From positions 1 through 64,000 of the forward strand of contig DAHUYQ010000044.1 in the NCBI GenBank assembly GCA_027315115.1: 64,000 nt of DNA. Direction: 5' to 3'. This document shows positions 1 through 7,012 of the stretch, piece by piece. The stretch comes from Solirubrobacterales bacterium (lineage in GTDB: Bacteria > Actinomycetota > Thermoleophilia > Solirubrobacterales > Solirubrobacteraceae). Each line of letters begins with the position of its first letter. Positions within the stretch are counted from its first letter, which is position 1. Under the pieces are notes generated by a model. It was not told where the DNA came from. It worked only from the letters and a program-made list of their open reading frames with translations, and did no database searches. The translations under genes and the position numbers were made by a program.

Positions 1-43
1 CTTCCCAAGCCGAAGGTCGCGGGTTCGAGACCCGTTCGCCGCT
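1..43 (+). tRNA. tRNA-Gly(CCC), 3' half only (5' part lies before the window)
   Basis: Anticodon loop TTCCCAA (anticodon CCC), 3' anticodon stem GCCGA, T-arm GCGGG-TTCGAGA-CCCGT, acceptor TCGCCGC + T. Confidence 0.75.
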
Positions 44-347: not shown

Positions 348-1004
348 ATGAGCATCCTTTCGCCCACCGATCGAGCCGTCCTGTGGCGTACCGCTGTCAC
401 GAGCGGGCCTGGGGAGCGCCCGTCGCTTCTGAGGGTTCTTGCTGCCGAGATCCTCGCGAGCGTCGGCCGCCGGCTCGATCTCTATGACGGCTATGAAGAG
501 GAGATCGTCGAGACTGTGGAGATCCTCGACCGCTCGGGGCTTCTCGGACGCGATGACCTGCGCGAGGCGTTCGAGGAGGCCGACGAGGACGATGGTCATG
601 CCGAGACCTTCGGTGCGATGCTCGCCGCTCACCTCGGCGCTGCCGCGGACATGGAGCGTCTCGGCGTCGAGCGTCGGCTGAGAGCCGTGCGGCTGGCAGG
701 CGCCTGGCAGGCGCATGTCGCCGATCATGCGCGCGCGCAACGCGAGTGGATGACGGCGGCTGAGGTCGCAGCGCGCTACGGAGTCACTCCGCAAGCCGTC
801 TACAGGTGGATCGCGGCCGGCCGGGTAAGAGCAGAGCAGACGCCCGGCGGGTCTTGGCGGCTGCCTGTCGACCAGTTCGCGGGCGAGCAGATCAGCCCTG
901 TTGCGAGCGCCGACCTCAAGGCGCGGCTGCTGGAGCGGGCGGGCGAGCGTCCTGCGCCCACTGACGAGCAACTTGCGGACGAGATCGTCAAACGCCGCCG
1001 CTGA
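348..1004 (+). CDS. Helix-turn-helix (excisionase/MerR-like HTH_17) DNA-binding protein, putative antitoxin
   Basis: Motif MTAAEVAARYGVTPQAVYRWIAAGRVRAEQTPGGSWRLPVDQF; abuts the next ORF directly. Confidence 0.7.
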   Translation: MSILSPTDRAVLWRTAVTSGPGERPSLLRVLAAEILASVGRRLDLYDGYEEEIVETVEILDRSGLLGRDDLREAFEEADEDDGHAETFGAMLAAHLGAAADMERLGVERRLRAVRLAGAWQAHVADHARAQREWMTAAEVAARYGVTPQAVYRWIAAGRVRAEQTPGGSWRLPVDQFAGEQISPVASADLKARLLERAGERPAPTDEQLADEIVKRRR

Positions 1005-1322
1005 GTGCTCGTCTGCTTCGACGCGACCGTCCTCTGCGGTGCGATCCGCAAGCCGACGGGGATCAACTTCAAGCTGCTCGAGCTCGCGGCCGCCGGGGTG
1101 GTGCTCGAAGGCTTCACGAGCGATGTCGCCGGCATGGAGTTCGTGCGGAACGCCCTCGACGGGCTCAGCGGCGTCTCGTATGAGATGGAGCTGTCCGCCG
1201 CAGCTCGACATGCAAACCTCATCTGCAGTTCCAATCGCCTGCACCTGCCAGAAGGACCACTCGCCGGCTACATCGAAATCGTCGGCCCCGCTCGCCTTGC
1301 CGCCCAACTTGGCATCGCGTAG
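1005..1322 (+). CDS. Short PIN-like domain protein (putative toxin, possibly internally deleted)
   Basis: Starts GTG immediately after the upstream TGA; N-terminal VCFDATVLCGAIRKPTGINFKLLELAAAG and C-terminal ICSSNRLHLPEG are PIN-like; only 105 aa. Confidence 0.45.
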   Translation: MLVCFDATVLCGAIRKPTGINFKLLELAAAGVVLEGFTSDVAGMEFVRNALDGLSGVSYEMELSAAARHANLICSSNRLHLPEGPLAGYIEIVGPARLAAQLGIA

Positions 1323-1458: not shown

Positions 1459-1501
1459 CTTCCCAAGCCGAAGGTCGCGGGTTCGAGACCCGTTCGCCGC
1501 T
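1459..1501 (+). repeat. Exact 43-bp direct repeat of the tRNA-Gly 3' half (att-like); not a full tRNA
   Basis: CTTCCCAAGCCGAAGGTCGCGGGTTCGAGACCCGTTCGCCGCT identical to 1-43; upstream bases (CGTAG) do not form the 5' anticodon stem. Confidence 0.9.
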
Positions 1502-1617: not shown

Positions 1618-1866
1618 CTAAGCAGGCAGTAGCTCACTCAAGAGGTTCGACCTGAAGTAGCTGGAGTGCGTGCGCTTGATCGTCTCCAGCGAGTCTGCGC
1701 TGAGAAGCACGACGTCGAGATCCTGCTGCACCGCAGCCTCTCGCTCGGCCGTGCTGTAGGCGACTTGCGCAGCCTCGTAGTCGGTGCCGAACGCCTTGAC
1801 GGTCGTGCGGCCGGACGCGGCGTCGCGTGTGACCAGGAAGTGCTTGATCTCGTCGGTAGGACTCAT
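1618..1866 (-). CDS. 82-aa small protein, candidate antitoxin to the RelA/SpoT-domain protein
   Basis: 4-bp overlap (ATGA) with the upstream RelA/SpoT-domain gene; small and acidic-leaning. Confidence 0.55.
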   Translation of the reverse strand: MSPTDEIKHFLVTRDAASGRTTVKAFGTDYEAAQVAYSTAEREAAVQQDLDVVLLSADSLETIKRTHSSYFRSNLLSELLPA

Positions 1867-2627
1867 TTTCGTTCTCGCTCTAGCCGTTGAACCAGTCCCA
1901 TGATCGCAGTTCCAATGCCTATGGCCAAGAGCTCGCGTTGAGAGAGCTCTCCTTGCTCGATGCCCGCGATCACGGCGGCGACGTTGGCGAACATGGCACG
2001 ATCGGACTCGGGTCCTTCACCGAACTTGAACTGGACGCCAGTCTGCAGCCCCGCCTGCTCGATGGCGTTCGCCCAAATATCCTGTCCGCGGGTCCGCAAC
2101 TGCACCTCGATCGGGAGACCGCTTCGACGCACGATCAGGTGCAGAGCGCGGTAGCCGTCGTCCTTCGGGCGGGCGATGTAGTCGCGCTCGCGGACGATCG
2201 TCCACGACTTCAGCAGCCTGCGCCGCACGCGATACACGTGAGGCGGGCTTGGCATGACCGCGCGCACGCCGCCGATGTCCTGCATCTGCGTGACGCTTCC
2301 CCGCTCACGGCCGAGCTTGCCGACGAGCGTGTCCTGTCGCTTGAGGCGTTGAGTGACCTCGACTCGCCCATCGACCTCAGCCGCCGCCTTGACGACGTGA
2401 TAGCGCAGGTTCGCGGATACAGCGGACAGCGGTCGAGCATGTAGGCCGCGCCACCACTCCAGCGCCTCGCGGGAAGCCTCAAGAGCAGCCTCGTCTGTCG
2501 CTCGTAACGCGCGCTCCGCGCCTTCGAGGCGCACACGCTCGCGAAACTCCAAGAGGAACATACCCGCGCGGTTCACCTGCCCCTTCGAGAACTGCGGAGC
2601 GTCCACGCCCTTTGCCGCTCGCGTCAC
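1863..2627 (-). CDS. RelA/SpoT-domain (small alarmone synthetase-like) protein, possible toxSAS
   Basis: RLKRQDTLVGKL, MQDIGGVRAVM, RERDYIARPKDDGYRALHLI and IEVQLRT match (p)ppGpp synthetase-domain motifs; no HD hydrolase domain seen. Confidence 0.8.
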   Translation of the reverse strand: MTRAAKGVDAPQFSKGQVNRAGMFLLEFRERVRLEGAERALRATDEAALEASREALEWWRGLHARPLSAVSANLRYHVVKAAAEVDGRVEVTQRLKRQDTLVGKLGRERGSVTQMQDIGGVRAVMPSPPHVYRVRRRLLKSWTIVRERDYIARPKDDGYRALHLIVRRSGLPIEVQLRTRGQDIWANAIEQAGLQTGVQFKFGEGPESDRAMFANVAAVIAGIEQGELSQRELLAIGIGTAIMGLVQRLERERK

Positions 2628-2665: not shown

Positions 2666-2841
2666 GAACAGAGCAGACGCCCGGCGGGTCTTGGCGGCTG
2701 CCTGCCGACCAGTTCGCGGGCGAGCAGATCAGCCCTGTCGCGAGCGCCGACCTCAAGGCGCGGCTGCTGGAGCGGACCGGCGAGCGTCCTGCGCCGACTG
2801 ACGAGCAACTCGCGGACGAGATCGTCAAACGCCGCCGCTGA
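2666..2841 (+). pseudogene. 3' fragment of a second copy of the HTH gene at 348-1004
   Basis: ~184 bp (2666-2849) matches 829-1012 with about 6 mismatches, including the stop codon; no 5' part present. Confidence 0.85.
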
Positions 2842-2931
2842 GTGCTCGTTTACTTTCCGGCGATTACTCTCGGGAGGGACCTTTGACGCCGTGGGGATCG
2901 TATAGATGGTGATGCACTGGCTGGCGAGGGG

Positions 2932-5915: not shown

Positions 5916-6683
5916 TCACGACACCCAATCAGCCGAGTTCACCGCGGGCTGCTCGGCAACGATGGCCTCATATTCCTGCTCGTCGAGCAGGTCGGCCGCG
6001 CGTGCTTCGCTGGCATACAGCAGCGTGCGCTTCGGCACTCGCGGATACCGGTCGTCCTCGGCGAGCGTCTGGATCGTGTCGCGGAGCCTGTGCGGGGCGT
6101 GGCGGCCAACTAGTGTCGCTGCCCGATTGGAGAGCTCGTCGATGAGCCGCTGCTTCGCGGTTGGGCCGATCGCACCCACGCGTTCGAGACGATAGACGGC
6201 GGCGGGGAACGCGATCCCGAACTCCAGGGCGAGACGCGCTGCGGTGTCCGGCGCCGCCGCGTCAGCGATGAGTTCCTGGTTCTCAAGCCAGCCCGTGATC
6301 GCGGCGCGGGGCGCGAGCAGCTCTGCAGCGAAGTAGTTCGCCTCGACCTCCTGGGGGTCACGGGTCGCTCCGAAGAGGTCCGATGAGAGCTCGACTCGGG
6401 GTTGGTGCCCCATGCAGAGGTGGCCGAGCTCGTGGGCGAGCGTGAAGCGTTGACGGACGGGGTTGTGGTCGGCGTTTACGGCCACGAAGCTCTCGCCGCT
6501 TCCGTGCTTGAGGAGCACGCCTGCGATCCGATCGTTGTCGAATCGCTCGATCAGCACCGGCACCTGCTCACGATCCTCGGCGACTTCCAACAGGTCCCTC
6601 ACAGGCTGGGTCTGCGCCAACCCCCAATGCTCGCGCGCCCTACGTGCCGCGCGTTCGCCGGGATGGAGAGGTCGGGCGCTCAT
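5916..6683 (-). CDS. ImmA/IrrE-family metallopeptidase
   Basis: FTLAHELGHLCMGH (HExxH) and EVEANYFAAELLAP. Confidence 0.88.
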   Translation of the reverse strand: MSARPLHPGERAARRAREHWGLAQTQPVRDLLEVAEDREQVPVLIERFDNDRIAGVLLKHGSGESFVAVNADHNPVRQRFTLAHELGHLCMGHQPRVELSSDLFGATRDPQEVEANYFAAELLAPRAAITGWLENQELIADAAAPDTAARLALEFGIAFPAAVYRLERVGAIGPTAKQRLIDELSNRAATLVGRHAPHRLRDTIQTLAEDDRYPRVPKRTLLYASEARAADLLDEQEYEAIVAEQPAVNSADWVS

Positions 6684-7012
6684 CCCGCGACCAGCGCCCG
6701 AACATATCGGTAGTGGTTGAAAGCCTCCTCGACTCTCGCGATGACGCGGCGCGCGTCGGCGTCGGCGTCGGCGCGTAGCAGCGCCCCAACCATCTTCGGC
6801 GGCGTGCCGAAGAGGATGGTGTCGCTGGGCACGCCGTAGTGGTCGCATAGAGCGGCGAGCTCGCCCGCGGCGAGGCCGCGGTTGCCGGCCATGAGCCGGG
6901 AGACGGCCGACTCGTCGATGTCGAGCACTCGGGCGAGGTCGGATTGGCTGTCGCCGCGCTCCTCAAGGAGATCCTTGATCCTGGCAACGATCTCATCCAT
7001 GTCGTTCTTCAT
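6680..7012 (-). CDS. XRE-family HTH regulator
   Basis: GDSQSDLARVLDIDESAVSRLMAGNRGLAAGELAALCDHYGVP; overlaps the ImmA/IrrE start by 4 bp. Confidence 0.88.
   Translation of the reverse strand: MKNDMDEIVARIKDLLEERGDSQSDLARVLDIDESAVSRLMAGNRGLAAGELAALCDHYGVPSDTILFGTPPKMVGALLRADADADARRVIARVEEAFNHYRYVRALVAG

What the first reader, a model, noticed from the sequence alone, without database searches (positions are those of the whole stretch)
1618..2627. Translationally coupled RelA/SpoT-domain gene and 82-aa ORF: toxSAS-like toxin-antitoxin candidate between repeated cassette fragments
1863-2627 has the synthetase motifs (RLKRQDTLVGKL, PKDDGYRALH, EVQLRT) without a visible HD hydrolase domain. It overlaps the downstream small gene by 4 bp (ATGA). 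Toxic small alarmone synthetases (FaRel, PhRel, CapRel families) are typically paired with small antitoxins and carried on mobile elements. The 82-aa partner fits no named antitoxin I can identify from sequence.
Basis: partly seen in the sequence, partly recalled or inferred. Interest (0 to 1): 0.72.

Follow-up and report, generated by a model that had tools for sequence, protein, structure and literature searches.

The report
Two-gene CapRel-type toxin-antitoxin pair
An actinobacterium carries a two-gene module in which an enzyme related to stress-alarm synthetases, probably one that disables tRNA, is held in check by a small partner protein; it is a new member of a known anti-phage family (CapRel/PhRel), in the two-gene form already reported as usual for actinobacteria.

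Summary
Window 2627-1863 (-) encodes a 254-aa RelA/SpoT-fold enzyme without an HD domain, and 1866-1618 (-) an 82-aa protein; the genes overlap by ATGA. The "unidentifiable" partner can be identified. The single-gene CapRel model (PADLOC PDC-S33; CapRel SJ46 scores 7e-87) matches the large protein over positions 5-219 and the small one over 264-329. The 82-aa protein also matches the family of Phrann gp30, the PhRel antitoxin. The toxin model's top PDB fold match is CapRel (E 4e-14); the antitoxin's is too, but weakly (E 0.12). The pair is therefore an unfused CapRel-type toxSAS module, a form already reported as usual in Actinobacteria. Likely mechanism: the antitoxin's C-terminal motif plugs the ATP site; release during phage infection lets the toxin pyrophosphorylate tRNA 3'-CCA ends. 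The genome holds three more copies with open antitoxin and broken toxin. One regularity is not mentioned in the main texts I read: standalone antitoxins carry THxxYF where fused proteins carry A(Y/F)PNYF (split: 41 H, 1 Y; fused: 76 Y, 5 F, 1 unread). It is phylogenetically confounded. Nothing was tested at the bench.

The parts
1863..2627 (-). toxin: toxSAS of CapRel type, 254 aa, GTG start; catalytic residues R94, K96, K104, R107, D117, R122, G-loop Y159, E174, Q176
1618..1866 (-). antitoxin: standalone pseudo-zinc-finger domain, 82 aa; neutralisation motif T66-H67-S-S-Y70-F71 at 1654-1671
1863..1866 (-). 4-bp ATGA stop/start overlap (translational coupling, inferred)
829..1018 (+). end of the intact HTH (excisionase/BldC-like) gene and start of the next gene; repeat copy 1
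2666..2855 (+). 5'-truncated second copy of the same stretch, 95% identical, directly upstream of the toxin gene
1..43 (+). tRNA-Gly(CCC) 3'-end sequence, likely attachment site; contig C41 of the same genome holds the full tRNA with the same sequence following it
1459..1501 (+). second identical tRNA-Gly 3'-end copy, likely attachment-site duplicate

Best explanation
The two genes are an unfused CapRel-type toxSAS toxin-antitoxin module. SHOWN by sequence and model: the 254-aa protein has a complete RelA/SpoT-type pyrophosphotransferase active site, the CapRel N-terminal helices and the R..H..PL segment, and no hydrolase domain. The 82-aa protein is homologous to the antitoxin domain of CapRel and to the PhRel antitoxin gp30, and carries the neutralisation motif as THSSYF. 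INFERRED from the studied relatives: in the resting cell the antitoxin docks on the toxin beta-sheet and puts H67/Y70 into the adenine site between R94 and R122, so that ATP cannot bind. A phage product sensed by the antitoxin frees the enzyme. The enzyme then moves pyrophosphate from ATP to the 3'-CCA end of uncharged tRNA, stops translation and aborts the infection. The trigger phage and the tRNAs attacked are unknown. The pair probably moves as a unit with elements that integrate at tRNA 3' ends.
For: PADLOC PDC-S33, a 349-position single-gene model, splits over the two genes: 5-219 at E 3e-47 and 264-329 at E 3e-8. The same model scores CapRel SJ46 at 7e-87 and Phrann gp29 at 1e-23. phrog_22117, the family of Phrann gp30, matches the 82-aa protein at 6.5e-7. 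The best PDB sequence match of the toxin alone is CapRel 7ztb/9erv, E 6.6e-14. AlphaFold2 models have pLDDT 90 (toxin) and 83 (antitoxin); Foldseek's first three hits are CapRel chains for both, significant for the toxin (4e-14) and not for the antitoxin (0.12, prob 0.84). Active-site residues map one to one on CapRel R79, D111, R116, Y155 and E180. Toxin and antitoxin co-diverge over 28 split pairs, r = 0.73, Mantel p = 0.0002. The toxin falls with CapRel/PhRel and away from RelQ-type SAS. Purifying selection acts on both genes. Published: unfused CapRel is the usual form in Actinobacteria (PMC9712102); pZFD antitoxins block the donor site of tRNA-pyrophosphorylating toxSAS (PMC11782079); Phrann gp29/gp30 defend against Tweety (PMC9262239).
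Against: No experiment on this pair or a close relative. The motif is HxxY, not the YxxY shown to matter in CapRel SJ46 (Y352A makes it toxic) and ATfaRel2; Phrann gp30 also has HxxY and that pair defends, but its motif was not tested in the texts I read. The antitoxin's fold match is not statistically significant on its own. CapRel versus PhRel placement is not decided by the tree (AU p = 0.07). The complex was not modelled.
Confidence: 0.82

Rival explanations
1. The toxin is an alarmone-making toxSAS (FaRel/Tas1-like): it makes (pp)pApp or (p)ppGpp and depletes ATP, and the antitoxin works otherwise.
For: The core domain is shared by all RSH synthetases; residues alone do not prove the acceptor.
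Against: The antitoxin is a lone pZFD with the donor-site motif and no Tis1-like domain; in PMC11782079 this form goes with tRNA-modifying toxins, while FaRel and Tas1 are blocked at the acceptor site. The closest relatives by sequence and fold are CapRel and PhRel.
Confidence: 0.08
2. An ordinary small alarmone synthetase (RelQ/RelP-like) next to an unrelated small gene.
For: RelQ/RelP structures share the fold.
Against: It lies outside the SAS rows in both trees; the small gene is homologous to the CapRel C-terminal domain; the pair recurs in relatives with no other shared gene in the 5-kb flanks compared.
Confidence: 0.02
3. A decaying module: the pair is no longer functional as a defence and persists as a remnant of an integrated element.
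For: Three other copies in the genome have broken toxins; the pair sits among truncated cassette copies.
Against: Both ORFs are intact, all active-site residues are kept, dN/dS is 0.22-0.32.
Confidence: 0.08

Closest known systems
Unfused CapRel:ATcapRel of Actinobacteria (PMC9712102, Extended Data Figs. 1 and 2)
   Different: The named example there is mycobacterial; this is a Solirubrobacteraceae relative, with four loci in one genome
Phrann gp29:gp30 (PhRel:ATphRel)
   Same: Same gene order; gp30 is homologous to the 82-aa protein and shares KRTHSxYF; known phage defence
   Different: Toxin only about 30% identical; lacks the R..H..PL segment; phage-encoded; separate clade
CapRel SJ46 (fused)
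   Same: Same toxin domain with all active-site residues, same antitoxin domain
   Different: One polypeptide; AYPNYF motif in place of THSSYF; antitoxin cannot leave the toxin
FaRel2:ATfaRel2
   Same: Two-protein toxSAS module with a pZFD antitoxin
   Different: FaRel2 is only a weak sequence match (E 1.5e-4); ATfaRel2 is circularly permuted relative to the CapRel domain and has YxxY (PMC11782079)

Membership tests
toxSAS | RelA/SpoT synthetase domain, no HD hydrolase domain | tested here: met
   PF04607 only
toxSAS | separate from housekeeping SAS in phylogeny | tested here: met
   FaRel, FaRel2 and PhRel2 were not in the trees
toxSAS | toxic alone, neutralised by partner | not testable with these tools
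   needs cloning
CapRel (unfused) | match to the CapRel model over toxin and antitoxin parts, antitoxin part on a separate gene | tested here: met
   PDC-S33 5-219 and 264-329; SJ46 7e-87 with the same model
CapRel (unfused) | N-terminal helices and R..H..PL segment as in CapRel | tested here: met
   alignment A2, model, fold match 7ztb TMq 0.70 over 240 columns
CapRel (unfused) | pseudo-ZFD antitoxin fold | tested here: inconclusive
   predicted beta-beta-alpha-beta-alpha; CapRel ranks first but E 0.12; sequence homology is clear
CapRel (fused type, as SJ46) | YxxY neutralisation motif | tested here: not met
   HxxY (THSSYF) here and in nearly all standalone antitoxins found, Phrann gp30 included; in this sample YxxY goes with the fused branch
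CapRel (unfused) | tRNA 3'-CCA pyrophosphorylation | not testable with these tools
   needs biochemistry
PhRel | groups with Phrann gp29 rather than with CapRel | tested here: inconclusive
   separate clades in both trees, but one clade with PhRel is not rejected, AU p 0.07
FaRel2 | closer to FaRel2 than to CapRel | tested here: not met
   FaRel2 E 1.5e-4 with the profile, absent at E 1 with the single sequence, CapRel E 6.6e-14

The most novel reading that the evidence does not exclude
The neutralisation plug comes in two chemical versions tied to architecture: a histidine plug (T-H-x-x-Y-F) where the antitoxin is a separate protein that must bind and leave, and an aromatic plug (A-Y/F-P-N-Y-F) where it is tethered. 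The change would have accompanied the single fusion event and altered how tightly, or in response to what, the toxin is held.
Probability: 0.2. Interest if true: 0.5.

Novelty: new member of a known kind. Interest (0 to 1): 0.33.

Why it matters
It moves an unannotated 82-aa protein into a known antitoxin family and documents split CapRel systems in the window's family and related lineages. Because the unfused form lies outside the single fused clade in the tree, such pairs are useful for asking how a free antitoxin senses phage. The H-versus-Y difference in the key motif is directly testable by changing one residue in a laboratory strain.

Tried and rejected
The 82-aa protein has no Pfam or NCBIfam hit and no tblastn hit in the phage collection even at E 1, and a profile of it finds no convincing PDB chain; the link came only through PADLOC and PHROG profiles. 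PDC-S33 has no mention in the paper library. An antitoxin scan of viral contigs found only what appears to be Phrann itself, so no solitary phage-encoded antitoxin (counter-defence) was seen. Searching other phyla with locus handles was not possible. Excess of broken toxins over broken antitoxins: with a toxin three times longer, three of three breaks in toxins has a chance near 0.43, so I do not rest on it. The promoter and terminator scan gave nothing. The housekeeping RelQ reading was rejected by the trees.

Full report
WHAT IS THERE. On the minus strand, 2627-1863 encodes 254 aa (GTG start) and 1866-1618 encodes 82 aa, with a 4-bp ATGA overlap. The first has Pfam RelA_SpoT over residues 93-188 and nothing else; the second has no Pfam or NCBIfam match.

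WHAT THE SMALL PROTEIN IS. The PADLOC model PDC-S33 (349 positions, one gene) matches the large protein over 5-219 (E 3e-47) and the small one over 264-329 (E 3e-8). phrog_4773 splits in the same way, and phrog_22117 matches the small protein at 6.5e-7. PDC-S33 is in effect CapRel: it scores CapRel SJ46 at 7e-87 and Phrann gp29 (PhRel) at 1e-23. phrog_22117 is the family of Phrann gp30. So the 82-aa protein is the antitoxin domain that in fused CapRel is the C-terminal pseudo-zinc finger. An AlphaFold2 model from 36 sequences (pLDDT 83) gives beta-beta-alpha-beta-alpha, in line with the three-stranded sheet plus helix described for that domain in PMC9712102. CapRel chains are its first three Foldseek hits, but with E 0.12 and probability 0.84, so the fold match alone would not carry the claim.

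WHAT THE LARGE PROTEIN IS. Its best PDB sequence match is CapRel (E 6.6e-14); a profile that includes CapRel ranks FaRel2 far lower (1.5e-4). The model (pLDDT 90) has CapRel as first fold match (E 4e-14, TM 0.70 over 240 columns), ahead of RelP and RelQ. Residues equivalent to CapRel R79, K81, D111, R116, Y155 and E180 are all kept. The segment R-x-L-H-x-x-P-L shared with CapRel is missing in PhRel.

RELATIVES. Close pairs exist in two Solirubrobacteraceae MAGs (L005 65%, L006 54% toxin identity), with no shared flanking gene within the 5 kb on each side that were compared. In a sample of 24 genomes of the window's genus 6 hold the antitoxin, the window's own included; in a class sample 22 of 299 and in a phylum sample 10 of 397. 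The pair is thus patchy. Where a tRNA gene lies within 5 kb (window, L209, L212, L214, L217, L219, L221, L223), the nearest one points its 3' end at the pair in all eight (the window by the contig join); other loci had no tRNA in the stretch read or end at contig edges. The window's own contig begins inside a tRNA-Gly(CCC) whose full gene is near the end of contig C41, so the pair lies next to a likely integration site. Codon third-position GC is 0.76 for the toxin against mostly 0.85-0.95 further along the window.

FOUR LOCI IN ONE GENOME. Besides the intact window pair, C57 has an antitoxin 83% identical to the window's; its toxin lost about the first 159 residues, and about 1.5 kb with a transposase-like reading frame lies between toxin remnant and antitoxin. 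On C16 the toxin's start lies in another frame, and on C14 its N-terminal helices are missing. All four antitoxin frames are open. The genome is an incomplete draft, so a frameshift may be an assembly error. With the toxin three times longer, this pattern is suggestive only.

CO-DIVERGENCE AND SELECTION. Over 28 split pairs toxin and antitoxin distances correlate (r 0.73, Mantel p 0.0002); some of this is shared ancestry. dN/dS is 0.22-0.32 for both genes against L005, L006 and the C57 copy.

TREES AND THE MOTIF. In a tree of 78 toxin domains all fused proteins form one clade (SH-aLRT 99) together with one recently split row, inside a grade of split ones; the window pairs with L005. A careful tree of 59 rows keeps the fused clade at 100/99; there the long Rel outgroup falls among split rows on a long branch, so the deep order is unsure, and one clade of window and PhRel is not rejected (AU p 0.07). 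Among 124 loci with a CapRel/PhRel-type toxin the motif reads H in 41 of 42 split pairs and Y (76), F (5) or unread (1) in 82 fused ones; these counts are per locus and include near-identical copies. The only split one with Y (L163) is a close sister of a fused one (L162), hence a recent break. Most split loci were found with an H-type antitoxin query, but a toxin-based search of 397 genomes gave the same answer: six of six split H, four of four fused Y, own genome apart. A fused relative within the window's own genus (L085) has Y. Motif and architecture change on the same branch, so this is one event and cannot by itself show a functional link. ATfaRel2 is split and has YxxY (PMC11782079), which argues that separation does not require histidine. 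I found no mention of HxxY or histidine in the main texts of PMC9712102 or PMC11782079, but figures and supplements were not read, and the Phrann and mycobacterial antitoxins are aligned in a figure of the former, so the difference may be visible there.

MECHANISM. In CapRel SJ46 the YxxY helix is proposed to slot between R79 and R116 and block adenine binding; a phage capsid protein or Gp54 holds the domain open; the enzyme then pyrophosphorylates tRNA (PMC9712102, PMC11578894). FaRel2:ATfaRel2 shows the same block by a separate protein. Phrann gp29/gp30 defend against Tweety and others (PMC9262239). By homology the window pair works the same way: antitoxin H67/Y70 against toxin R94/R122, release on infection, tRNA CCA pyrophosphorylation. 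Homology, active site and fold are shown here; toxicity, neutralisation, substrate and trigger are inferred.

VERDICT. A well-supported but ordinary find: a new unfused CapRel-type module. The motif regularity is the one point worth a bench test.

Noticed in passing
window 348-1322 (+): HTH gene (excisionase/BldC-like, 218 aa) followed directly by a 105-aa ORF that begins like a PIN domain but has no Pfam hit above cut-off; possibly another toxin-antitoxin pair. Its 5'-truncated copy at 2666-2855 abuts the toxin gene.
   Followed up: partly
window 5916-7012 (-): IrrE/M78 metallopeptidase gene overlapping an XRE-type HTH gene, a regulator-peptidase pair about 3 kb from the find; GC3 of the peptidase gene is also low.
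   Followed up: partly
L199:894-2909 (own genome, C57): Antitoxin copy 83% identical to the window's with a transposase-like stretch between it and a toxin remnant.
   Followed up: yes
L003 (own genome, C16) and L004 (own genome, C14): Two further pairs sit between housekeeping-like genes (surE- and truA-like; polA-like and an epimerase-like gene, by eye), with toxin frames disrupted or shortened and antitoxins open.
   Followed up: partly
L216 (G015), L060, L077, L064, L080: Antitoxin-like genes without a detectable toxin in the stretch read; several lie near contig ends.
   Followed up: partly
PADLOC PDC-S33 (model, not a place): This candidate single-gene defence model corresponds to CapRel; it matches split systems only in two pieces, so annotation may miss or half-call them.
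   Followed up: yes
L037:2366-3465 (Escherichia phage vB_EcoM-673R5): A CapRel-like gene annotated as two ORFs; reads like a disrupted fused CapRel.
   Followed up: no
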